From assembly GCA_016839845.1 (NCBI GenBank), contig JAEOTL010000504.1, positions 1 to 8,690 on the forward strand: a stretch of DNA of 8,690 nt, written 5' to 3'. A model generated the notes under the pieces. That model was not told where the DNA came from and searched no databases. It saw only the letters and a list, made by a program, of their open reading frames with translations. Positions 150 to 8,690 of the stretch are shown in pieces. The DNA comes from Promethearchaeota archaeon. GTDB lineage: Archaea; Asgardarchaeota; Lokiarchaeia; Sigynarchaeales; SOKP01. The position numbers were made by a program, and so were the translations under genes. Position 1 is the first letter of the stretch. Every line of letters starts with the position of its first letter.

Positions 150-1373
150 TTATCTTTCTTTTGATTCAATGAATTCCTTATCTTTTTTTATGAAATACGC
201 CCAGGCATTTCGAGACATTAGACTATAATCAGCTTTACCAATGTTTTGAAGGAGTTTAATTCTCAATTTTCTTGCTGCGATATTTTCTGGTTCTGCTTGA
301 ATTAGCACATCTAAGATTTCTAGTCCCAATTGAGCTTGATTATTATCTAAGAGTTCTTGGGCTCGCGTTAGGATTATATCAGAATTCCCAATTAAATTGA
401 ATATCTCACTCATAACCTCTTTTTGTGGTCTGGGTAGGAGATGCGCAGGATTTTCATCAAAATAACCATGATACCAGCGATACACATTATACACAAAGAA
501 TTCAGGTCGAGAATAACTCGCTCGAAGATATGGACTTTTCATTAAATGATCAGGCAACCTTACCTCGTGAATCATTTCAGTAATATGGGTACCTTTATTG
601 ATGTGATCAACTACTTGATCATGAAGCGAACGGATAGCTTCTATATTATCATTAAGTCGATTCAAAGCTTCCTTACCTTGAATAAAGGTTCCACCACCAC
701 CATAAAAAATGTATTCTGGTTTGAGATCCCGAATTCTCTCCAGTTCTTTTGCCCAATCTAATGCAAATCGAGTTGGTTTCCAGGGATTACCTACGTTAGG
801 AAGACTTCCGATCAACAGATCTCCAATAAATGCTGCGTTTAGTTCTGGTACATACACCCATACCGCATCATCAGTTTCTGCTCTTGCTGTATGAAGTTCG
901 AATGTCTTATCTCCCAACTTAAATGTCATATCCCCAAGGAACGTCATTGTTGGATAAATAATATCAAATTCTGGGATAGCTTCTTCACCTCCAAATTGTT
1001 GCGCATCTTTACGAGCTTTATAGGGTGCTAACATTTGATATCGATCGAATCGATTTGGTAAGTATTTGCTCGCAATAATTTCGGGGTTTTCGTCCATGAA
1101 TACATTCGTTCCACGCACATGATCCATATGACCATGTGTATAAATTATATATTTAATTTTATCCTTGATTCGCTCTTTTACTTGTTTAGCTACTCTTCTA
1201 GAAATTAGGGTATCGATTAAAACTACACCTTCTGTTGTATGAACCCATCCACATGAAGAAAGAGGGGCTACTGCTGTACCCACATCTTTAATTGGCGTAT
1301 TAAATGATGGTTTAAGAGTATATACATTTATCGGTTCAACTTTTTCTGATTGGTCTTCATTCTCTCTTGACAT
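150..1373 (-). CDS. Metallo-beta-lactamase fold hydrolase of the alkylsulfatase type, with alkylsulfatase-like dimerisation region
   Basis: A 407-residue cytoplasmic protein (no signal peptide visible). Residues about 35-235 form a metallo-beta-lactamase domain with the metal motif THGHMDH at 79-85 (H80, H82, D84, H85). Further possible ligands are E166 in AETDD and D185 in IGDLL. Residues about 240-315 match the alkylsulfatase pattern, ending in the hallmark YRWYHGYFDENPAHLLP (298-314). Residues about 318-400 look helical, like the alkylsulfatase dimerisation domain. Classical SDS-type alkylsulfatases are about 650 residues, are exported, and end in an SCP2-like domain; that domain and the signal peptide are missing here. 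Where the family usually has a metal-binding His after the last core strand, this protein reads YGGGGTFIQG (224-233), with no His. Family members split sulfate esters, but the substrate here is unknown and the altered site makes sulfatase activity uncertain. ATG start at 1373; no clear Shine-Dalgarno, and an A/T-rich TATA candidate at 1400-1410 fits a short leader. Confidence 0.8.
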   Translation of the reverse strand: MSRENEDQSEKVEPINVYTLKPSFNTPIKDVGTAVAPLSSCGWVHTTEGVVLIDTLISRRVAKQVKERIKDKIKYIIYTHGHMDHVRGTNVFMDENPEIIASKYLPNRFDRYQMLAPYKARKDAQQFGGEEAIPEFDIIYPTMTFLGDMTFKLGDKTFELHTARAETDDAVWVYVPELNAAFIGDLLIGSLPNVGNPWKPTRFALDWAKELERIRDLKPEYIFYGGGGTFIQGKEALNRLNDNIEAIRSLHDQVVDHINKGTHITEMIHEVRLPDHLMKSPYLRASYSRPEFFVYNVYRWYHGYFDENPAHLLPRPQKEVMSEIFNLIGNSDIILTRAQELLDNNQAQLGLEILDVLIQAEPENIAARKLRIKLLQNIGKADYSLMSRNAWAYFIKKDKEFIESKER

Positions 1374-1399
1374 AATTAAAAATTAGAATGTAGGATGAG

Positions 1400-1410
1400 A
1401 TAAAAAAATA
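1400..1410 (-). promoter_or_regulatory. Candidate TATA box for the metallo-beta-lactamase gene
   Basis: An unbroken A/T stretch (ATAAAAAAATA on the plus strand) is centred about 32 bases upstream of the ATG at 1373. That spacing suits an archaeal TATA box with a leader of a few bases. The whole intergenic region is AT-rich, so this is weak evidence. Confidence 0.3.
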
Positions 1411-1433
1411 AGGAAATAATATGTAATATTTCA

Positions 1434-1577
1434 CTAAAATTCATAAGCTGGGGATTGATGAAGACATTTACCGCAAAAATCTCTGCAAATAATGCCATAT
1501 ACATTATTTATCATTGCATCGTCGTATTTCTTTAGCGATAGAACGTGATAATGACATTTAAGGGAAGTTTTTACCAT
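1434..1577 (-). CDS. Possible 47-residue Cys/His-rich (zinc-ribbon-like) small protein
   Basis: Between the divergent hydrolase genes, an ATG at 1577 opens a 47-codon frame ending in TAG at 1434-1436. The product begins MVKTSLKCHYH and ends in CRDFCGKCLHQSPAYEF. Its potential metal ligands are C8, H9 and H11 near the N-terminus and C31, C35, C38 and H40 near the C-terminus: a CxxH pair and a CxxxCxxC group about 20 residues apart. That spacing is reasonable for a one-zinc mini-domain, and four cysteines in 47 codons is high for random AT-rich sequence. An A/T-rich TTTATAAAAC lies just upstream (1587-1596), but too close to the ATG to be a leaderless TATA box. It reads toward the metallo-beta-lactamase gene, whose start is 60 bases downstream, so the two could be co-transcribed. 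No family recognised; it may be a chance ORF. Confidence 0.4.
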   Translation of the reverse strand: MVKTSLKCHYHVLSLKKYDDAMINNVYGIICRDFCGKCLHQSPAYEF

Positions 1578-1660
1578 GTTAATCACGTTTTATAAAAAAT
1601 TTCTTTAATTAACATAAGTGTTAAATAATCTGTGATTTTAAATTACATTAATCTAAAGTA

Positions 1661-1666
1661 GAGGTT
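1661..1666 (+). promoter_or_regulatory. Shine-Dalgarno-like GAGGTT of the PAF-acetylhydrolase-like gene
   Basis: GAGGTT ends eight bases before the ATG at 1675. It resembles the archaeal GAGGTG consensus and supports this start. The A/T-rich runs at 1618-1629 and 1635-1645 are possible TATA boxes; the first would leave a leader long enough to hold the motif. Confidence 0.5.
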
Positions 1667-1674
1667 GAAATAAT

Positions 1675-2778
1675 ATGAATGAACAAGAAGAAATTTATGA
1701 GCCTTTCAATCGTGGACCATTTCCGGTGGGTGTTCTCAGCCAAGATTTAGAAGACCCAGGAAGAAAGAGAACCCTTCCTACTGAAATTTGGTATCCCGCT
1801 ACGGATGAATATCTTAGACAAGATTTAGCCGAAGAAACTAAAGACACTTTTGAAGTTATGGGTATATCCGGAACCCAAAAGGCTGTACGTGATGCAAAAC
1901 TCCGTAACGGGTCTTTTCCCCTTATAATTTACTCACATGGTCATGGAGGACATAGAAGATTATCAGCACATCTTTGCACTCATCTAGCCAGCCATGGGTA
2001 TGTCGTGGCATCATCTGATCATATTGGGAATACAGTCAATGATATGTTAAGTTTTGCGGATATGACTGAACAGGAAGTGTTCAATATCGGTGCTCAAGTT
2101 TTTGTTAATAGACCAAAAGATGTTACCTTCTTAATTGATTGTATGCTGGAAAATAAATCAGCCATCCCCTCTATGGCAATTGAGGAAGAAAGAATCGGAG
2201 TCACAGGGTATAGTTACGGTGGTTGGACTATTCTTATGGCAACTTCAAATGACCAACGCATCTCTGTCGCATTACCTATCGCATCTGGAGGAGGAACGCT
2301 TCCGGACCCTAATGAACCAAACCCTGCACGGGATGTACTTAACTTGGATTGGAAGCGTGAAATACCTACACTTTACATTGCTTGTGAAAAAGATACTCTT
2401 GTACCCCTCTCCTCTATATATGATCTTTATAGTCGAACTCAAGAACCCAAGAAATTAGTCATCCTCAAGAACGCAGATCATTTTCATTTTAGCATAGAAA
2501 TGGAAGCTGTCTATGAACTAATGCACCAACAAGCTGAGGTATGGTTTGGGGATACCCCTGCAACAAAATATATAAAAGAAAATTTAATCCAGTACTCACA
2601 ATCTTGCCCAGCAGAAAAAGCAGATGCATTTTTATGTGCACTAGGGCTTGTTCATATGGATACACATCTTAAGAATAACGTCAATGCGGAAAAGTGGTTA
2701 AAGGGTGATATTGAAGCCTATATGTCTGAAAAAGGTATAGGTGTAAGCATTCCTAACCCATCTGAAATTGTAGTATAA
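1675..2778 (+). CDS. Alpha/beta hydrolase, platelet-activating factor acetylhydrolase (PAF-AH II)/dienelactone hydrolase type
   Basis: A 367-residue soluble protein with an alpha/beta-hydrolase core at about residues 15-290. The N-terminal TEIWYPA (36-42) and the oxyanion region LIIYSHGHGGHRR (83-95) match the PAF-acetylhydrolase group. The nucleophile elbow is GYSYGG (178-183, Ser180), the likely acid is Asp240 in CEKDTLVP, and the likely catalytic His is His269 in NADHFHF. Order and spacing make a complete Ser-Asp-His triad. Residues about 290-367 form an additional tail that looks helical and is not part of the catalytic core. The family hydrolyses short or oxidised acyl chains from phospholipids or other small esters; no signal peptide is visible, so it probably acts inside the cell. 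The substrate is not deducible. The ATG is supported by GAGGTT eight bases upstream. It is divergent from the metallo-beta-lactamase gene and convergent with the P-loop kinase gene. Confidence 0.82.
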   Translation: MNEQEEIYEPFNRGPFPVGVLSQDLEDPGRKRTLPTEIWYPATDEYLRQDLAEETKDTFEVMGISGTQKAVRDAKLRNGSFPLIIYSHGHGGHRRLSAHLCTHLASHGYVVASSDHIGNTVNDMLSFADMTEQEVFNIGAQVFVNRPKDVTFLIDCMLENKSAIPSMAIEEERIGVTGYSYGGWTILMATSNDQRISVALPIASGGGTLPDPNEPNPARDVLNLDWKREIPTLYIACEKDTLVPLSSIYDLYSRTQEPKKLVILKNADHFHFSIEMEAVYELMHQQAEVWFGDTPATKYIKENLIQYSQSCPAEKADAFLCALGLVHMDTHLKNNVNAEKWLKGDIEAYMSEKGIGVSIPNPSEIVV

Positions 2779-2789
2779 TCAAAACTAAA

Positions 2790-2810
2790 ATTCCTTCTCC
2801 TTTTTTTATA
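2790..2810 (+). terminator. T-rich terminator after the PAF-acetylhydrolase-like gene
   Basis: Starting 12 bases after the TAA stop is a pyrimidine-rich stretch that ends in seven T (2801-2807), with no hairpin needed. Archaeal RNA polymerase terminates at such T-tracts. It sits in the 67-base gap before the convergent kinase gene. Confidence 0.5.
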
Positions 2811-2845
2811 TCAGTGTTTATAACCTTTGTAAAGTGTAAGATTAC

Positions 2846-3406
2846 TTACTTTATAGCATTATCAAAGATGATTCTTTTATTTTTTTTAACTTTAGTCAAA
2901 AATGTTTCAACTTTCCTCGGTGATTTAAGCCTAATGAATTGTATATTTGGATAATAATCCGACCCGGCATATGTTTCATATTGTACTCTGACTATTCTAT
3001 GTTTTTTTATTGTATAAAGTACTATAGATTCTTTAGTAAATAAGGCTCCCAAAGTCTCTATATTTCCTGTACCTGGCCATAGTTCTTCTCTAGCAATAAT
3101 TCTTCTAATTGCCCTCTTGATTGCTTGTAAAAGTGAACGAATGAAACTGAAATCAAGCCAGATAACGATATCTACACATTCCCATTTTATAGGCGTTGTT
3201 CTTGTGTAGTTTCCATCCAATATCCAGCTCTCACCTTTTATAGCTGAACGTAATTTTACACAGAATTCTTCATAACTAGTTTGTTCCCAATAAGGCCCCC
3301 AAAAAAGAGCATCCATTTCAATGTGTGGAATGGATAAAATTTCAGATAAGTCCTTGGAAAAAGTTGTTTTCCCACTGCTACTTGTTCCTACGACATTAAT
3401 TTTCAC
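2846..3406 (-). CDS. P-loop NTPase/adenylate kinase-like protein, FlaR (topology modulation) type
   Basis: A 186-residue protein beginning MKINVVGTSSSGKTT with a classic Walker A motif at residues 7-14 (G-x4-GKT). The pattern that follows is typical of the FlaR or 'topology modulation' kinases: HIEMDALFWGPYWEQTSYEEF from about residue 28, WILDGNYTRT at 61-70 and DIVIWLDFSF at 79-88. A basic helix-rich lid region (RAIRRIIAREELWPG, 98-112) and a final strand (QFIRLKSPRKVETFL) complete it. The family binds ATP and is related to nucleotide and shikimate kinases; its real substrate is unknown, and the 'topology modulation' name is historical. The start is GTG at 3404-3406. It is supported by a GAGGAAG motif at 3412-3418, five bases before it. 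It lies downstream of the acyl-CoA dehydrogenase-type gene but has its own upstream region, so it is probably a separate transcript. Confidence 0.82.
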   Translation of the reverse strand: MKINVVGTSSSGKTTFSKDLSEILSIPHIEMDALFWGPYWEQTSYEEFCVKLRSAIKGESWILDGNYTRTTPIKWECVDIVIWLDFSFIRSLLQAIKRAIRRIIAREELWPGTGNIETLGALFTKESIVLYTIKKHRIVRVQYETYAGSDYYPNIQFIRLKSPRKVETFLTKVKKNKRIIFDNAIK

Positions 3407-3411
3407 AAATA

Positions 3412-3418
3412 CTTCCTC
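3412..3418 (-). promoter_or_regulatory. Shine-Dalgarno motif GAGGAAG deciding a GTG start
   Basis: On the minus strand GAGGAAG lies five bases upstream of the GTG at 3406. This is the best ribosome-binding motif in the window and the reason for accepting GTG as the kinase start. Confidence 0.6.
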
Positions 3419-3489
3419 TTTATAGCTTTATCGCCAAATTAATCAACTGCTTATGTTAATTACAAATTACTTAGGGAATTTTAGAATTA

Positions 3490-3538
3490 TATAAAACAAT
3501 AAGAAATAATAAAATAAAAAAAATAGGAAAAATTAAAA
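3490..3538 (-). terminator. Oligo-T terminator after the 3-hydroxyacyl-CoA dehydrogenase gene
   Basis: Directly after the TAG stop (3539-3541), the minus strand holds several T-runs, the longest of eight T (3516-3523 as A on the plus strand). No stem-loop was found. This fits archaeal intrinsic termination and separates this gene from the kinase gene. Confidence 0.5.
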
Positions 3539-4702
3539 CTATTTCATATCTACAAATTTACCGCTCCGAAGCAACTCACACGGTTTAATATATTCCCTTC
3601 CGAGTTTTTCAGAGTATTCGTCTAATAATTTGACTAAGCCTTCCCAATTTGGAATACCTCTCTCAAAAGGCCCAGGAGCATTCATACCTGCCATATTTGC
3701 ATCGTCAATTACTTTCCATCCGGAAGCAATGCCTTCTTCTAAGATCCTGCATCCTTCATTTAACTGAATTGCCAGAAATACTCCTCCATTTACTAATCCT
3801 GCTTTTTCGATTTTCGAGAAGTCTGGTTGTGGTCTTCCCTTAGTCCAATCATAATATCCTTGACCAGATTTTCTACCTAATTTTCCTTCATTAAACATTT
3901 TTGTAACTACTTTACCTGGTCTGAAGTCTTCATGCAATGTATCAGCATAATAATTTCGAACATGATATCCCGTATCGATCCCTGTATAATCGGCTAATAC
4001 TAAAGGACTCATTGGACCTCGCGATCCGAAGTCAGCATCTAAAGACTCAAAAGGAATTCCTTTCTCTAAGCATGTATCAAGAAGATAATTCATGTAGATG
4101 CCACCTGGGGCATTTAGCCTATTCACAATGAAGCCAGGTCTATCTTTCAAGACTTTTGCAACATATCGGTCTCCTCTAAGGCATGGCAAACTCGCACTGA
4201 CCTTCATACCAATCTCCATTGCTTCTTCAGAAGATGCCTCACCTGCAATAACCTCTATCAACCGCATTAAAGGGGCGGGATTGAAAAAATGCATCCCAAT
4301 ACATTTATCTTGTCTATTCGTGGCAGTTGCCATTTCAGTAATAGACATTGTAGAAGTATTTGAAGCAATTACCGCATGAGCAGGAGCGTTATCATCGCAA
4401 GTTTTGAATATATTTTTCTTTACATCCATATCCTCAACGACAGCTTCAATAATCAAATCAGCATCTTTCACAGCAGCAGCTAGATCTAAATTTGTCTTCA
4501 TTCGTGCTAGGAGTTCTGCGGCCTTTAAAACTCCCTTCGATTCTAATTTATTAAGGCCACCTGTAATGTTTTCCACAGCTCTATCGATGAATTCCTGTTT
4601 TATATCAACCAGAGTGATGTTATATCCGGCCATCAATCCACATTGGGCGATTCCGTTACCCATTAGTCCGACGCCTATTACAACAATATTTTTAACATCC
4701 AT
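3539..4702 (-). CDS. 3-hydroxyacyl-CoA dehydrogenase (two C-terminal 3HCDH domains)
   Basis: A 387-residue NAD-dependent enzyme that oxidises (S)-3-hydroxyacyl-CoA to 3-ketoacyl-CoA, or the reverse, in beta-oxidation or butanoyl-CoA-type pathways. Residues 1-185 are a Rossmann domain: GVGLMGNGIAQ (10-20) binds NAD, D33 ends strand 2, and SNTSTMSIT (114-122) is the conserved serine loop. GMHFFNP (136-142) holds catalytic His138, and E150 in RLIEVI completes the His-Glu pair. DRPGFIVNRL (187-196) opens the first C-terminal domain with N194, and GRKSGQGYYDW (276-286) is its usual end. Residues about 305-385 form a second, shorter copy of the C-terminal domain, including NAPGPFERGIPNWEG (341-355). 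This makes it about 100 residues longer than the simple 285-residue bacterial enzyme. The upstream FMN enzyme on the same strand suggests shared acyl metabolism, but a separate gene and a terminator repeat lie between them. ATG start at 4702. Confidence 0.9.
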   Translation of the reverse strand: MDVKNIVVIGVGLMGNGIAQCGLMAGYNITLVDIKQEFIDRAVENITGGLNKLESKGVLKAAELLARMKTNLDLAAAVKDADLIIEAVVEDMDVKKNIFKTCDDNAPAHAVIASNTSTMSITEMATATNRQDKCIGMHFFNPAPLMRLIEVIAGEASSEEAMEIGMKVSASLPCLRGDRYVAKVLKDRPGFIVNRLNAPGGIYMNYLLDTCLEKGIPFESLDADFGSRGPMSPLVLADYTGIDTGYHVRNYYADTLHEDFRPGKVVTKMFNEGKLGRKSGQGYYDWTKGRPQPDFSKIEKAGLVNGGVFLAIQLNEGCRILEEGIASGWKVIDDANMAGMNAPGPFERGIPNWEGLVKLLDEYSEKLGREYIKPCELLRSGKFVDMK

Positions 4703-4715
4703 CTTTTACACTCTC

Positions 4716-4726
4716 ATTTTTTAAAA
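4716..4726 (-). promoter_or_regulatory. Candidate TATA box of the dehydrogenase gene
   Basis: CTTTTAAAAAA on the minus strand is centred about 20 bases upstream of the ATG at 4702, somewhat close for a leaderless start. A weak purine motif (GAGAGTG) lies between it and the ATG. The direct repeat copy begins four bases further upstream, so this promoter directly borders the duplicated segment. Confidence 0.3.
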
Positions 4727-4729
4727 GAT

Positions 4730-4794
4730 TACTAATACAAGAAAAAATTAAAAAAAAGATAAATTTTGCTTATTTCAAAAATCCATAAGCATTT
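4730..4794 (-). repeat. Direct repeat copy A: orphan 3' end of the FMN enzyme gene plus T-rich terminator
   Basis: These 65 bases match 5526-5589 with one single-base insertion and one C/T change. On the minus strand the copy reads the last codons of the FMN enzyme gene (N-A-Y-G-F-L-K-stop), then two T-runs of eight and six. The match stops within the codon before this fragment, so no more of that gene is present. The copy lies downstream of the membrane protein gene's stop (4848) and just upstream of the dehydrogenase promoter. It can serve as a terminator for the membrane protein gene. It is best read as a non-coding remnant. Confidence 0.85.
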
Positions 4795-4847
4795 ATAACA
4801 CAAATAGTTTTATGAAATACTTTGGTGGAATGAATTAGGGGGTACCT

Positions 4848-5318
4848 TCATTGTGTTAATGTAAATAAAAATTGCAAATACCATAATGCAAGAATAATTA
4901 CCACTAAAATAACTGCTAACATACCAAATTTTTTTAGTTGCTCTGGTGAAGTAATAAATGCTCCGATGAGGCCAATGATGCCTCCGATTAGTGTAAAAAG
5001 AGGTCCAAGGAAAAAGAGGTCCAAGTAGAAATTTGTAAAAACACCGGATAATAAAGTGAAATACCCGATTAAAAAACAAAAAAGCATCCCACTGAAACGA
5101 TATTTAAAGGTGCTAAGCGTCCCAATTATGGTGAATATTCCCAAGGCGATCTCTAATAATGAGCCCATACCCCATCCAATATTCAATGGAAGTGTTGCAA
5201 TCCCTTCATAGATAAAAGTAATGGCCCCAATCACACACACAACCATCCCAATAATTGAAAATGTTTTTGAAAATAGTAATTTTGAGTCTTTATTTTCTTG
5301 TTCTGAGATTGGTTTCAC
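4848..5318 (-). CDS. Small multi-pass membrane protein of unknown function
   Basis: A 156-residue, strongly hydrophobic protein. A charged N-terminus (MKPISEQENKDSK) is followed by about four to five membrane helices, at roughly residues 20-40, 46-67, 75-98, 101-121 and 132-152. The short connecting loops hold few charges (KYR near 72-74, SPEQLKK near 124-130). Glycine-rich helices such as GPLFTLIGGIIGLIGAF recall small four-helix membrane proteins found in many archaea, but I recognise no family. The start is GTG at 5316-5318, chosen because the next ATG (residue 24) would cut into the first helix; the bases AAGGTG overlapping the start resemble a Shine-Dalgarno but do not help. The gene lies between two copies of the same 64-65 bp repeat, so it may have been inserted between the FMN enzyme and dehydrogenase genes. 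Its role is unknown. Confidence 0.7.
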   Translation of the reverse strand: MKPISEQENKDSKLLFSKTFSIIGMVVCVIGAITFIYEGIATLPLNIGWGMGSLLEIALGIFTIIGTLSTFKYRFSGMLFCFLIGYFTLLSGVFTNFYLDLFFLGPLFTLIGGIIGLIGAFITSPEQLKKFGMLAVILVVIILALWYLQFLFTLTQ

Positions 5319-5525
5319 CTTGGTTGTTAAAATTTCGACATAACTGTGTAATTGATATAATTGAATACTATCTATATAAAGATAATGTGAAAAATTAGAG
5401 GTAAATTATTGTTTTTGGTGGTAATATACTTGTTGAATTAAGAAGAAGAAAAAGAAAAGGTTAATCGGTAATCAATTCAAAGAATAGACTCAAGTTTGGT
5501 CAGACCACTCGTAATATTTTCAAAA
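5319..5525. other. Intergenic region upstream of the membrane protein gene
   Basis: About 200 AT-rich bases with no credible ORF. It holds A/T-rich candidates for a minus-strand TATA box (around 5345-5358), a purine-rich tract at 5440-5460 and a tiny inverted repeat TGGT-CAG-ACCA at 5497-5507. None is strong. Next to repeat copy B, the bases at about 5505-5525 weakly resemble the flank of repeat copy A next to the dehydrogenase promoter, and may be a decayed extension of the duplication. Confidence 0.4.
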
Positions 5526-5589
5526 TACTAATACAAGAAAAAATTAAAAAAAAATAAATTTTGCTTATTTTAAAAATCCATAAGCATTT
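5526..5589 (-). repeat. Direct repeat copy B: native 3' end and terminator of the FMN enzyme gene
   Basis: These 64 bases are the partner of 4730-4794. They contain the last codons and TAA of the FMN enzyme gene, then T-runs of nine and six on the minus strand, a good archaeal terminator. Because this copy is attached to the intact gene, it is the likely original. Confidence 0.85.
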
Positions 5590-6617
5590 CGCAAACGTTT
5601 CTCAGCGTCAGTTACTATGTCATCAACTATCTTCCCAACTTTTTCTACACTGGGAATGACTCCAATACTTTGACCTAATAATACAGCGCCAGAATTAACG
5701 TCTCCGGTGTATGCTGCCTCATAAGCTTTACCTTCGTTTATAATATCTTCAGGACTCATCTGTTTTTCTTCAGCCATTTTCGCTTCCTTATCTGCTACCA
5801 ATCCATGATGTAATGAATATTCATTTTTCCATAGGCGTATTGGTCCTAATGCACCTGTTACTAGTATTGTATCTTGAGCTTTTGCTGAAGGGACAACGTT
5901 TTTATATTCTTTACTAAACTCACTATCTTCCGAAGCAATAAATCGTGAACCCATAGCAATGGCTCCTGCTCCCATAGCTAAAGCTGCCGCAAGTCCTTCA
6001 CCAGTAGCAAATCCACCGCATGCAACTACAGGATAATCAGGAAATTTCTGCATTACCTGTTGTAATAGAACTAATGTACTCACTTTTTCATACGATTGAT
6101 GACCTCCACCTTCCCCACCAGTAACAACTAACCCATCTACCTTTGCTGCAACACACTTTTCAGCGAGCCATAAGGCGGGAGCAACGTGAAAGTGTTTTAT
6201 TTGAGATCCACTTTCCTTTAATTTTTGATAATCTTGTGACATAGGTAGAGTTTTTGAAGATCCTGCGCTTGTAATAGCATAAACACACTGTTCTTTCACT
6301 CTTTGATTTTCCATAATGAATTTTGGAATTTCTGTAACTAACCGTGCAGCATCAAGTTCCCTTCGAGAAGTCCTTACATTAAAGCCAAATGGCTTATCTG
6401 TATGCTCTACTACTGTTAACATATTTTCTTTCATAATATCAATGGCGCTTTTACCTTTTTGATAGTCACTTATTAATGCGCTGTGACTTAGTACACCAAG
6501 ACCACCAGCTTCTGAAACTGCAATTGTCAGCTCAGTAGTATAGAAAGGGCCCATTGGAGCGGCAATAATAGGGTGTTTAATCCCTAACATTTTAGTAATA
6601 TTTGTTTCTAATACCAT
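5565..6617 (-). CDS. Nitronate monooxygenase/2-nitropropane dioxygenase family FMN protein (FabK-like)
   Basis: A 350-residue TIM-barrel flavoprotein. The start IIAAPMGPFYTTELTIAVSEAGGLGVL (17-43) is the family N-terminus, with the FMN-contacting APM. Residues 163-173 (LVVTGGEGGGH) match the EAGGH motif, whose His (H173) is the proposed catalytic base in nitronate monooxygenases. YPVVACGGFATGEGLAAALAMGAGAIAMGSRFI (195-227) is the phosphate-binding part for FMN. Length fits the family. Members oxidise alkyl nitronates or, as FabK, reduce enoyl-ACP; many archaeal members have unproven function and sit near acyl-CoA genes, as here with a 3-hydroxyacyl-CoA dehydrogenase on the same strand. I cannot separate these roles by sequence alone. 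The ATG at 6617 is preceded by a weak AAGGG motif and by an A/T-rich TATA candidate some 30-45 bases upstream. The gene's last codons and terminator recur at 4730-4794. Confidence 0.87.
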   Translation of the reverse strand: MVLETNITKMLGIKHPIIAAPMGPFYTTELTIAVSEAGGLGVLSHSALISDYQKGKSAIDIMKENMLTVVEHTDKPFGFNVRTSRRELDAARLVTEIPKFIMENQRVKEQCVYAITSAGSSKTLPMSQDYQKLKESGSQIKHFHVAPALWLAEKCVAAKVDGLVVTGGEGGGHQSYEKVSTLVLLQQVMQKFPDYPVVACGGFATGEGLAAALAMGAGAIAMGSRFIASEDSEFSKEYKNVVPSAKAQDTILVTGALGPIRLWKNEYSLHHGLVADKEAKMAEEKQMSPEDIINEGKAYEAAYTGDVNSGAVLLGQSIGVIPSVEKVGKIVDDIVTDAEKRLRNAYGFLK

Positions 6618-6700
6618 TTTTTTATACCCTTAAATTAATTCTTGATTTATATTTTTAATAAATTAAATAGAGAAATTTAATATAATGTAAATATTTTTAC

Positions 6701-6714
6701 TTTTTAGTTTTGAA
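6701..6714 (+). repeat. 14-base motif TTTTTAGTTTTGAA, copy 1
   Basis: The same 14 bases occur at 8502-8515. This copy lies 144 bases before the first LRR gene, the other 91 bases before the second, so both are in the upstream regions of the paralogues. It could be part of a duplicated unit or a T-rich terminator-like piece. In AT-rich DNA a chance match is possible. Confidence 0.35.
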
Positions 6715-6812
6715 CTTTCAACATTTGTTTATTAAAATAGGAAACAATTTGAAAGAAAAAAGAATTATTTATATGTCTAATTGTTGATTTACTTCCACTG
6801 AGTTGGAGTAAA

Positions 6813-6822
6813 TATTTAAATA
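6813..6822 (+). promoter_or_regulatory. TATA box of the first HTH-RHH-LRR gene (leaderless spacing)
   Basis: TATTTAAATA is centred about 27 bases before the ATG at 6845, with AGTAAA just upstream as a possible TFB-recognition element. There is no Shine-Dalgarno motif. Together these predict a leaderless mRNA starting at or next to the ATG. The same box at the same distance precedes the paralogue at 8593. Confidence 0.8.
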
Positions 6823-6844
6823 CGCACACTTCTTCTATATTTGT

Positions 6845-8488
6845 ATGAGTGAGAGAAAACATGGGCGAAGATATTCCTTTAAGGAGAAGAAAGATATTTT
6901 AGACTTTCTGGAGAATCATACATACAAGGACACAAGTGAGAAGTTTAATATATCAGAAACTACCTTATCACGGTGGAGAAATGAAATCAAAAGTGGGAGT
7001 AAATATAATAAGACTAAAATAATTATCTCTCTCCCAAAATTTTGGCTTGAATATTTAAATGAACAAATTGAAGCAGATGTCTGGGAAGATTATTCTGATG
7101 CGGTATTAACAATCATCCGGGACTATGTAAAATTAGCTAAAGATGCTGATTCAAATTACTTAAAACGTGCAAAAGAGATTCTTCCAACTCTAGTAAATCT
7201 TAATTCTAATATTGAATCTATGTTAGTTTCAAGTTCTAACGAAGTAATATACAAAACAGAGAAATGGGAATCAGCTGAAGAGATTCTTGATTTGATAAAG
7301 ATTTGGAAAGAAAGTGCTCGTTGGCATCAAAATCGGAGAAATAAGTGGAAAAACACATTTACCTTTCCAAAATTGGATCCTGAAAATAGAAATATTAGAT
7401 CTTTTGAATTTCAAAAAGAAACTTATTCTGTAAGAGATATTTCTGTAAAACATTTAATAGCAGTTAAAAGAGGTATCCCTCCTTCTTCACAATTACCTTG
7501 TTATTTATTAATGTTGAGAAGAAAATTAACTGAAATGGATGTATATATTTTCGCAATAGCAAAACAAATGGAGCAAAGTTCATTATTATCAGCAATGGAT
7601 ACCCTCAAAAGAGCCGCAATGGGATCCCTTCCACCTTCTACCGAATCTACTGTTGAAAAGTCATCACCAACTCCCAAGGATATGCCATCAAGTGAATTAA
7701 AAACGATATTGAAAAGATTTAAAAAAAATAAGAATTATCGAAAAGAATCGAGAGCAAATTGGGAAAAGGAAAAGGAAAAAAAGTTTAAAATGGGGGGGGT
7801 TTTGATGCGGGTAGCTACTCGAGTGAATATACCCCTAGAGCCTGAGGAGAAAAAAGTGCTTGAAGCATTAGAAATACAAATTGGGAAAAAAATTGAGAGG
7901 ATTACGGCGGATCCTGAGCAAAAAATATCTAGAAATGATCTAATGCCCTATCAAAAGGGAAAACTATTTCAAGGATCGTACCAAAAACTGCCATGGATGC
8001 ACGCTAATGTAAATTTCCCAGCATATTTATTTCCTTGTCATTATATAGCCTCAAATGGAAAGATAATCCTCTTGACGTTATTGAATTTTGGTCTATCAGA
8101 GATTCCATCCGAAATTCTAGATCTCAAAAGTTTAACTTATCTCAATTTTAATTCAAACAACATATCTGAACTACCAAAAACATTTTCCAACGCAAAATCT
8201 CTAGAAAATCTCTTTCTGAATAATAATCAATTCATTAAGGTTCCAGATATTCTTATTGAATTACCTAAATTACAAAACCTTTATATGAGAAATAATCAAA
8301 TTTCCAAAATCCCTATTATTTTAACTGAAGCCTGGCAAGCCCGTATTGGGGATCCTAATTTTCCTCCCGGTAATTTAATTTTCTCAGGAAATCCGATTGA
8401 TCGTAGCTCATTATCACAGGAGCAATTAGAATTGGAACAAAAATCTTTGTTAAATATGCATCGTAACCTTTATTTCGTCATCGATTAG
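6845..8488 (+). CDS. HTH + ribbon-helix-helix + leucine-rich-repeat protein (new architecture)
   Basis: A 547-residue, probably cytoplasmic protein. Residues 7-48 form a helix-turn-helix like those of transposase OrfA/Psq proteins: RRYSFKEKKDILDFL, a middle helix, then a recognition helix ISETTLSRWRNEI (36-48). Residues 57-97 look like a CopG/Arc-type ribbon-helix-helix: strand TKIIISLP, helix FWLEYLNEQIEA, helix YSDAVLTIIRDYVKL. Residues 100-260 are helical and unrecognised. A low-complexity Ser/Pro and Lys-rich linker (262-315) follows, then residues 316-400, including LEPEEKKVLEALEIQIGKKI. Residues 405-518 are four LRRs plus an end piece, with the repeating pattern LxxLxLxxNxIxxLP (for example LTYLNFNSNNISELP, 430-444). 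I infer a DNA-bound regulator whose LRR part binds a protein or other partner; no partner is known. The ATG is set by the TATA box 27 bases upstream. An eight-G tract lies at codons 316-319. A tandem relative starts at 8593. Confidence 0.8.
   Translation: MSERKHGRRYSFKEKKDILDFLENHTYKDTSEKFNISETTLSRWRNEIKSGSKYNKTKIIISLPKFWLEYLNEQIEADVWEDYSDAVLTIIRDYVKLAKDADSNYLKRAKEILPTLVNLNSNIESMLVSSSNEVIYKTEKWESAEEILDLIKIWKESARWHQNRRNKWKNTFTFPKLDPENRNIRSFEFQKETYSVRDISVKHLIAVKRGIPPSSQLPCYLLMLRRKLTEMDVYIFAIAKQMEQSSLLSAMDTLKRAAMGSLPPSTESTVEKSSPTPKDMPSSELKTILKRFKKNKNYRKESRANWEKEKEKKFKMGGVLMRVATRVNIPLEPEEKKVLEALEIQIGKKIERITADPEQKISRNDLMPYQKGKLFQGSYQKLPWMHANVNFPAYLFPCHYIASNGKIILLTLLNFGLSEIPSEILDLKSLTYLNFNSNNISELPKTFSNAKSLENLFLNNNQFIKVPDILIELPKLQNLYMRNNQISKIPIILTEAWQARIGDPNFPPGNLIFSGNPIDRSSLSQEQLELEQKSLLNMHRNLYFVID
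7792..7799 (+). repeat. Eight-G homopolymer tract inside the LRR gene
   Basis: Eight consecutive G lie in codons M316-G317-G318-V319, between the Lys-rich linker and the LRR half. In this frame the gene stays open. One G fewer gives TGA at once, overlapping an in-frame ATG (TGATG at 7803-7807); one G more gives TGA after about 19 codons. It may be a slippage site or a place where the assembly is error-prone. Confidence 0.75.
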
Positions 8489-8515
8489 CTTCTTCAACTA
8501 TTTTTTAGTTTTGAA
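8489..8515 (+). terminator. T-rich terminator after the first LRR gene
   Basis: The 27 bases after the TAG stop include six T at 8501-8506 followed by AGTTTT. No hairpin is present. It overlaps the second copy of the TTTTTAGTTTTGAA motif (8502-8515), which also lies upstream of the first LRR gene. Confidence 0.45.
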
Positions 8516-8555
8516 AGGTCATTAATCTTTAATTACTACTTACACTACAGTTTAA

Positions 8556-8575
8556 GTAAGTATTTAAATACTTAC
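8556..8575 (+). promoter_or_regulatory. TATA box inside a perfect 20-bp palindrome, promoter of the second LRR-family gene
   Basis: The core TATTTAAATA (8561-8570) is centred about 27 bases before the ATG at 8593, again the leaderless spacing. The flanks GTAAG and CTTAC extend it to a perfect 20-base palindrome. The first gene's promoter shares the core and similar bases upstream (ACTTnCACT, AGTAA) but not the right arm. The palindrome could be an operator for a dimeric regulator, perhaps the family's own product. Confidence 0.75.
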
Positions 8576-8592
8576 GCTTTTTATATTTTTTT

Positions 8593-8690
8593 ATGAGCGA
8601 AAAAATTCATGGTCGAAGATATTCATTCACAGAAAAGAAAGAAATCTTAAGTTATTTAAAAAATCACACATATAAAGAAACATGTGAGAA
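8593..8690 (+). CDS. Second HTH-family paralogue, 5' fragment
   Basis: The first 32 codons of a gene that continues past the window. Its N-terminus (MSEKIHGRRYSFTEKKEIL) matches the 547-residue neighbour's (MSERKHGRRYSFKEKKDIL); 23 of the 32 visible residues are identical and there are no gaps. The part seen covers the start of the helix-turn-helix only, so whether a ribbon-helix-helix and LRRs follow is unknown. The start is ATG at 8593, placed by the TATA box 27 bases upstream and by the match to the first copy. It begins 105 bases after the first gene's stop, in the same direction, with its own promoter, so this is a tandem duplication rather than an operon partner. Confidence 0.85.
   Translation, partial: MSEKIHGRRYSFTEKKEILSYLKNHTYKETCE

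What the first reader, a model, noticed from the sequence alone, without database searches (positions are those of the whole stretch)
6845..8488. DNA-binding LRR protein: HTH plus ribbon-helix-helix fused to leucine-rich repeats
Seen: an N-terminal HTH (7-48), an RHH-like strand-helix-helix (57-97), a long unrecognised centre and C-terminal LRRs (405-518) in one frame. Known: LRR proteins are common in Asgard archaea and mediate protein contacts, while HTH and RHH domains bind DNA. Two different DNA-binding modules plus LRRs in one chain is an arrangement I do not know. Inference: a regulator or chromatin-associated protein whose LRR part senses or recruits a partner, possibly a lineage-specific family.
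Basis: partly seen in the sequence, partly recalled or inferred. Interest (0 to 1): 0.72.

Follow-up and report, generated by a model that had tools for sequence, protein, structure and literature searches.

The report
Asgard DNA-binding profilin with leucine-rich repeats
A gene of an Asgard archaeon joins two DNA-binding modules to a profilin (in other organisms a regulator of the actin skeleton) and to leucine-rich repeats, which suggests that some Asgard archaea put actin-type proteins to work on DNA.

The parts
6845..8488 (+). Gene: HTH - RHH - profilin - linker - LRR cap - LRR, 547 aa
   Evidence: ORF; 31 relatives; alignment A1
6863..6994 (+). Helix-turn-helix (residues ~7-50; helices 12-24, 27-34, 38-49)
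7013..7150 (+). Ribbon-helix-helix (residues ~57-102)
7151..7630 (+). Profilin domain (residues ~103-262), helix-2 strands-helix-5 strands-helix
7631..7801 (+). Linker (residues 263-319); P0002-P0008 carry ~50 more residues here; 8-G run at 7792-7799
   Evidence: alignment A1; pLDDT under 50 at 263-299
7802..8035 (+). LRR N-terminal cap (residues 320-397)
   Evidence: AF2 block means 86-98 over 331-360, 55-65 over 361-380; homologous cap in P0033-P0036
8036..8485 (+). Leucine-rich repeats and C-terminal end (residues 398-547)
8593..8690 (+). Start of a tandem paralogue, cut by the window end (MSEKIHGRRYSFTEKKEILSYLKNHTYKETCE)
   Evidence: translation
8549..8690 (+). Direct repeat of 6801-6942 (142 nt, 75% identical in register): the copy takes in promoter and gene start
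8556..8575 (.). Perfect 20-nt palindrome GTAAGTATTTAAATACTTAC over the TATA-like box of the paralogue; possible operator
   Evidence: only perfect unspaced palindrome of 18 nt or more in the window; 0.02 of 20 nt or more expected per shuffle, 300 shuffles
6808..6827 (.). Related element upstream of the focus gene, 17 of 20 bases the same, itself a palindrome over only 10 nt

Best explanation
A dimeric, sequence-specific DNA-binding regulator with a profilin as its partner-sensing part. The RHH makes the dimer and reads DNA through its paired strands, the HTH adds a second DNA contact, and the profilin domain with the LRR solenoid binds a protein partner (actin, an actin-like or another Asgard protein) and so sets where or when the protein acts, probably including its own promoter. 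Shown here (by computation): the domain order, profilin homology, the predicted HTH and RHH folds, conservation of the order in relatives. Inferred: DNA binding, dimerisation, autoregulation, partner binding. Unknown: the partner.
For: Domains. Same order RHH-like, profilin, cap, LRR in distant Asgard proteins: P0033-P0036 and L173 (complete), L174 (cut by the contig end). The same RHH with another HTH-like N-terminus stands alone (139-141 aa; L099, L108-L110) or before LRRs without profilin (414 aa; L098, L102, L105), so it behaves as a module handed different partner domains (that N-terminus has only HTH_7 at E 0.074). The focus type of HTH is also fused to Roadblock/LC7 (L107 1.1e-11, L114 3.2e-9). 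Another branch of profilins is fused to TrmB winged-helix regulators. Promoters: palindrome over the paralogue's TATA-like box, promoter copied with the gene; CTACTA and TAGTAG boxes on either side of the TATA-like box in 8 of 9 related HTH+RHH genes examined (seen by eye).
Confidence: 0.6

Rival explanations
1. DNA-actin tether: the RHH/HTH half holds a DNA site while the profilin holds actin, so that filaments or monomer turnover move or anchor DNA, as the RHH protein ParR does with actin-like ParM on plasmids (ParR/ParM recalled, not from a call).
For: Predicted RHH plus an actin-regulator domain in one chain; tandem paralogue with a palindrome before it.
Against: No array of sites: two close copies of the element in the window (third best match has 6 of 20 mismatches) and one weaker 19-nt copy at 7042-7060. 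The genes beside it that could be named are metabolic, not replication or partition genes. Profilin binds monomers and barbed ends rather than holding filament sides (recalled). Actin positions only partly kept.
Confidence: 0.13
2. Accessory gene of a mobile or fast-turning-over island: the transposase-type HTH and multiplying paralogues reflect a selfish or defence-related element, with LRR and profilin as recognition parts.
For: HTH resembles transposase HTHs; tandem copy; the gene is absent beside the nitronate-monooxygenase gene in the three loci with the most similar copy of that gene (L001, L002, L008), and in all 67 loci the focus protein has only two short hits (75 and 106 residues); truncated members.
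Against: No transposase, integrase or defence family above cut-off in the seven window proteins scanned with Pfam/NCBIfam; PADLOC finds nothing in the focus protein; no confirmed match in 2.9 million viral contigs with the two peptide patterns used. Terminal repeats of an element were looked for only within 6600-8690 (no clear pair beyond the promoter copy).
Confidence: 0.13
3. The RHH and HTH are only dimerisation parts and the protein works on the cytoskeleton or at membranes, not on DNA.
For: RHH folds dimerise; profilin and LRR are protein-binding parts (general knowledge).
Against: Two DNA-binding folds in a row, the same RHH standing alone with an HTH-like part as 139-141-aa proteins, and a separate profilin branch carrying TrmB DNA-binding domains make a DNA role likelier.
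Confidence: 0.1
4. Assembly or frame artefact at the 8-G run that joins two genes.
For: Homopolymer at 7792-7799; local residues differ from relatives there.
Against: Same fusion in relatives from several sources and contigs and, minus the HTH, in P0033-P0036.
Confidence: 0.01

Closest known systems
Asgard profilins (LokiProfilin1/2 5yed, 5yee, 5zzb; OdinProfilin 5zza; heimProfilin 6yrr)
   Different: Those are single-domain proteins; PMC8410842 (passages) reports 12 of 256 Asgard homologues with an N-terminal extension over 5 residues, the longest 25. Here DNA-binding modules stand before the profilin and LRRs behind it, and the position of heimProfilin G104 is C219
RHH-profilin-LRR proteins of other Asgard archaea (P0033-P0036, L173, L174)
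   Same: Same order RHH-like, profilin, linker, cap, LRR
   Different: No HTH; P0033 is 26-28% identical to three focus-family members in the joint alignment; their RHH part and the focus RHH do not match by profile comparison (P0033-P0036 tested)
Profilin-TrmB proteins (L176, L177, L179, P0037 and others; where named, called helix-turn-helix, transcriptional-regulator or hypothetical proteins)
   Same: Profilin joined to a DNA-binding domain in one chain
   Different: Profilin is N-terminal, the DNA-binding part is a TrmB winged helix (Pfam 7.4e-11 in L176), no LRR family hit in the two scanned; separate branch of the profilin tree
ParD/CopG/NikR-type RHH regulators
   Same: Strand-helix-helix fold, rmsd 1.1-1.4 A to ParD and NikR chains
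   Different: No toxin-antitoxin or nickel-binding family hit; no sequence-level family match
HTH-Roadblock/LC7 proteins of Asgard archaea (L107, L114 and others)
   Same: Same type of N-terminal HTH, joined to a small protein-binding domain of the wider profilin-like fold
   Different: Roadblock, not profilin (Pfam Robl_LC7; no profile match to the focus centre); no RHH or LRR family hit in the three scanned

Membership tests
Profilin | Sequence homology to solved or recognised profilins | tested here: met
   hhalign A3-A5 prob 95.7, E 9.8e-9. L134, first row of A5, matches OdinProfilin at 1.6e-17; of 19 centre-hit frames examined, the 18 others match L134 by phmmer at E<=9.5e-9. Weaker: direct PDB search with the centre profile has Loki profilins on top at only E 0.11-0.12, next to RNase HI at 0.14 and up. 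No Pfam Profilin hit for the window protein
Profilin | Fold helix-2 strands-helix-5 strands-helix | tested here: met
Profilin | Positions used for actin in heimProfilin (G63, F95, G104) | tested here: inconclusive
   By the chain 6yrr - L134 - A3: F95 -> L204 (L in 32 of 32), G104 -> C219, G in 13 of 32; G63 -> E145 (E in 26 of 32; next column G in 30 of 32, E in the window)
Profilin | Actin and polyproline binding | not testable with these tools
   needs protein
Ribbon-helix-helix | Strand-helix-helix fold | tested here: met
Ribbon-helix-helix | Sequence match to an RHH family | tested here: inconclusive
   no hit in Pfam or PDB sequences; of the RHH-profilin-LRR proteins, P0035 has NikA-like 0.0044 and L142 0.018, below cut-off
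Ribbon-helix-helix | Intertwined dimer binding DNA by a paired strand | not testable with these tools
   no multimer prediction, no protein
Helix-turn-helix (HTH_28 / transposase type) | Tri-helical HTH with family-level sequence match | tested here: met
   27 of 32 members match HTH_28 at E<=1, best 4.6e-8; window protein 1.4e-4, below Pfam cut-off; fold
Leucine-rich repeat | Repeats above curated cut-off and solenoid model | tested here: met
Roadblock/LC7 | Profile similarity to Roadblock domains | tested here: not met
   A3 against alignment A6 of eight HTH-Roadblock-type proteins: prob 1.7

The most novel reading that the evidence does not exclude
Asgard archaea use profilin as a link between actin and DNA: at least two separately evolved families join profilin to DNA-binding modules so that actin (monomer level or filament ends) controls, or physically holds, particular DNA sites - an archaeal counterpart, from before eukaryotes, of actin-responsive transcription or of actin-driven DNA movement.
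Probability: 0.25. Interest if true: 0.93.

Novelty: new variant of a known kind. Interest (0 to 1): 0.77.

Why it matters
Profilin is one of the eukaryotic signature proteins by which Asgard archaea are tied to the origin of eukaryotes, and in the passages read here it is treated as a single-domain actin regulator. Finding it built into DNA-binding proteins in at least two ways would suggest that part of the actin toolkit was wired to DNA in archaea, and gives testable constructs (HTH-RHH-profilin-LRR, RHH-profilin-LRR, profilin-TrmB) for asking whether it senses actin. It also helps annotation: where named, the profilin-TrmB proteins are called helix-turn-helix, regulator or hypothetical proteins, and Pfam sees the profilin below cut-off or not at all in the proteins scanned.

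Tried and rejected
Frame artefact at the G tract: rejected from relatives. Roadblock as identity of the centre: my first guess from the predicted secondary structure; rejected by the fold list (absence from that list alone would not exclude it) and the control comparison. RNase HI rows (E 0.14-1): taken as chance. RHH by sequence: Pfam, PDB and comparison with the RHH of P0033-P0036 all failed; only the fold supports it. The first full-length model drew helices over the RHH at pLDDT under 50; a second model with a better alignment replaced it. Foldseek on the full model showed no profilin in its first 50 rows, which are LRR proteins as far as their titles tell, and on the N-terminal model had no match at E<=0.001. 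Family in one genome per species (GTDB 220 contigs) and in viral contigs: 28 and 35 pattern matches, none confirmed. Operator hypothesis: perfect palindrome only at the downstream gene, the focus gene's copy is weak; among 17 upstream regions of related genes, palindromes of 16-18 nt with one or two mismatches occur in 4 (L142, L174, L116, L103), so a palindrome as such is not a shared mark. Defence system: no PADLOC hit. Tree of 42 profilin domains: the join of the window family with the RHH-profilin-LRR rows has support 90/87 and the program warns that long branches meet there; it was not rebuilt without them, so one origin for these two groups is tentative. Literature: nine full-text searches listed no paper whose title or abstract start describes a DNA-binding profilin; where word-start matching was used 'profilin' also matches 'profiling', so those counts are inflated. 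Only passages of PMC8813620, PMC8410842 and PMC10933270 were seen; Akil and Robinson 2018 and Ponlachantra 2023 were looked up and are not held.

Full report
What is there. The frame 6845-8488 (+) encodes 547 residues without interruption. The neighbouring genes scanned are metabolic or unassigned: a metallo-beta-lactamase fold/alkyl-sulfatase-dimerisation protein, an esterase/PAF-acetylhydrolase-like protein, a small P-loop kinase-like protein, a 3-hydroxyacyl-CoA dehydrogenase, a small protein with no Pfam or NCBIfam match, and a nitronate-monooxygenase/FabK-like protein. The last, used as a query, finds 67 loci in one-genome-per-species contigs, up to 90% identical; 64 of 67 are titled Lokiarchaeota or Lokiarchaeia, the others Hodarchaeum, Sigynarchaeum and Bathyarchaeota. 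So the window most likely comes from Lokiarchaeia. No whole genome is held for it.

The family. A search of 5.8 billion proteins with residues 1-390 gives 32 proteins at E<=0.001, one of which is the window's own, so 31 relatives; those with an organism name are Promethearchaeota. In alignment A1 the HTH, RHH, centre, linker, cap and LRR are collinear. 25 of 32 match an LRR family and 27 of 32 HTH_28 at E<=1; the others are shorter at one end or the other. The fusion is therefore a conserved gene, not a product of the 8-G run at 7792-7799; at that run the window protein differs locally, and it lacks about 50 linker residues found in P0002-P0008.

Relatives with other make-ups. P0033-P0036 (460-487 aa; P0033 is L142) and L173 (428 aa) have an RHH-like N-terminus, profilin, linker, the same kind of LRR cap and LRR, without the HTH; L174 is the same but cut by its contig end. 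The focus type of RHH also occurs behind a different HTH-like N-terminus, alone (L099, L108-L110, 139-141 aa) or followed by LRR without profilin (L098, L102, L105, 414 aa); that N-terminus has only HTH_7 at 0.074 in Pfam. The focus type of HTH occurs with Roadblock/LC7 (L107, L114). In one search no listed match covers RHH and the whole profilin part together, so the exact four-part gene was not found in these 227 genomes, nor in GTDB 220 contigs (two patterns) or viral contigs.

A second kind of DNA-binding profilin. L176 and L179 (413 and 401 aa) are profilin + TrmB winged helix: Pfam TrmB 7.4e-11 and 1.2e-11, above cut-off, and the N-terminal 145 residues of L176 match OdinProfilin at 2.5e-10; L177 is a close copy of L176 (95% identical). 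Full-length matches of L176 occur in 19 of 227 genomes (20 genes), while 75 of 227 have some match at E<=1e-10, mostly to the profilin or the regulator part alone. In the protein database 163 proteins match L176 at E<=1e-20 (only the 7,992 candidates sharing most words were scored); the 120 listed all carry PF01978. They were not checked one by one for the profilin part, but nearly all listed rows cover 96-100% of the query. L180 and L175 are profilin + leucine carboxyl methyltransferase (LCM 9.1e-32 and 3.3e-33; profilin part by the A5 profile). A tree of 42 profilin domains puts the window family with the RHH-profilin-LRR proteins (90/87, with a warning that long branches meet) and the TrmB fusions with other profilins in an 18-row group (98/96). 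So profilin appears to have met DNA-binding domains at least twice.

Does it bind actin? Untested. heimProfilin positions G63, F95 and G104 mattered by alanine mutation (PMC8410842, passages). Carried over by alignment, F95 becomes L204, invariant in 32 of 32; G104 becomes C219 in the window, with glycine in 13 of 32; G63 becomes E145, with glycine one column on in 30 of 32 but not in the window. PMC10933270 (passages) describes a three-strand motif as the actin-facing feature that sets profilin apart from Roadblock; the model has five strands after the central helix, in keeping with profilin. The family's own invariant residues (W141, S143, I151, W154, F189, R197, D198, S200, K202, H203, L204, I235, A237, K255, G260) suggest a conserved surface whose partner is not known.

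Promoters. A second family member starts at 8593 and is cut by the window end. The stretch 8549-8690 repeats 6801-6942 at 75% in register, so promoter and gene start were copied together. A perfect 20-nt palindrome lies over its TATA-like box (8556-8575; 0.02 expected per shuffle); the related element (17 of 20) at 6808-6827 before the focus gene is a palindrome over only 10 nt. In 8 of 9 related HTH+RHH genes examined (not L116), CTACTA and TAGTAG boxes stand on either side of the TATA-like box (seen by eye, rows closely related). This fits autoregulation but does not show it.

Context. In the three loci whose nitronate-monooxygenase is most like the window's (L001 90%, L002 89%, L008 83%) the genes for it, the hydroxyacyl-CoA dehydrogenase and the metallo-hydrolase keep their order, but the focus gene is absent; in L001 and L002 another gene, which I read by eye as ketopantoate-reductase-like, stands in its place. 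Over all 67 loci (flanks of at most 3 kb) the focus protein has two short hits, 75 and 106 residues long. The gene therefore lies in a spot that differs between genomes.

Judgement. Architecture: near certain for HTH, profilin and LRR; likely for RHH. Mechanism: a dimeric DNA-binding regulator with a profilin-LRR partner half is most likely (0.6). Actin as the partner is a real possibility, not a result. Nine searches of an open-licence full-text library listed no DNA-binding profilin, but two key papers were not held, so novelty in print is not proven.

Noticed in passing
L176:1107-2348, L177, L179 and P0037 onward: Large Asgard family of profilin fused to a TrmB winged-helix regulator; 163 proteins at E<=1e-20, full length in 19 of 227 genomes.
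   Followed up: partly
L180:247-1512 and L175:271-1560: Profilin fused to a leucine carboxyl methyltransferase domain.
   Followed up: no
L107, L114, L115, L117-L122: Short proteins with the same type of HTH as the focus gene followed by a Roadblock-like domain: Robl_LC7 in L107 and L114, MAPKK1_Int below cut-off in L121; the others were not scanned. Possible GTPase-linked regulators.
   Followed up: partly
L123:1474-2667: A similar HTH in front of a myo-inositol-1-phosphate-synthase-like enzyme (Pfam 1.4e-14).
   Followed up: no
L125-L130, L136, L137, L140, L141: Asgard profilins of about 200-220 aa with a conserved C-terminal tail (about 'DPxLKxEIxxFLxWIKDxxGLSxYIxYYLQQN') of unknown role.
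   Followed up: no
L131:2-661, L132:1276-1983, L133:1097-1588: A second profilin-like frame beside each of these three standalone profilins (phmmer 2e-13 to 2e-12 to L134).
   Followed up: no
upstream of L098, L099, L102, L103, L105, L108-L110: CTACTA and TAGTAG boxes flanking the TATA-like box of HTH+RHH genes, a possible operator.
   Followed up: partly
window 7792-7799: Run of 8 G in an A+T-rich gene, where relatives read other residues; could be a slippage site.
   Followed up: partly
P0023, P0024, P0025: Family members that end early in the cap or first repeats with a changed C-terminus, as a frameshift would give; P0025 is on a 74.7-kb contig.
   Followed up: no
window 150-6617: Cluster nitronate monooxygenase - hydroxyacyl-CoA dehydrogenase - metallo-hydrolase shared with L001, L002 and L008, with extra genes in the window (4848-5318; 1675-3406).
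   Followed up: partly
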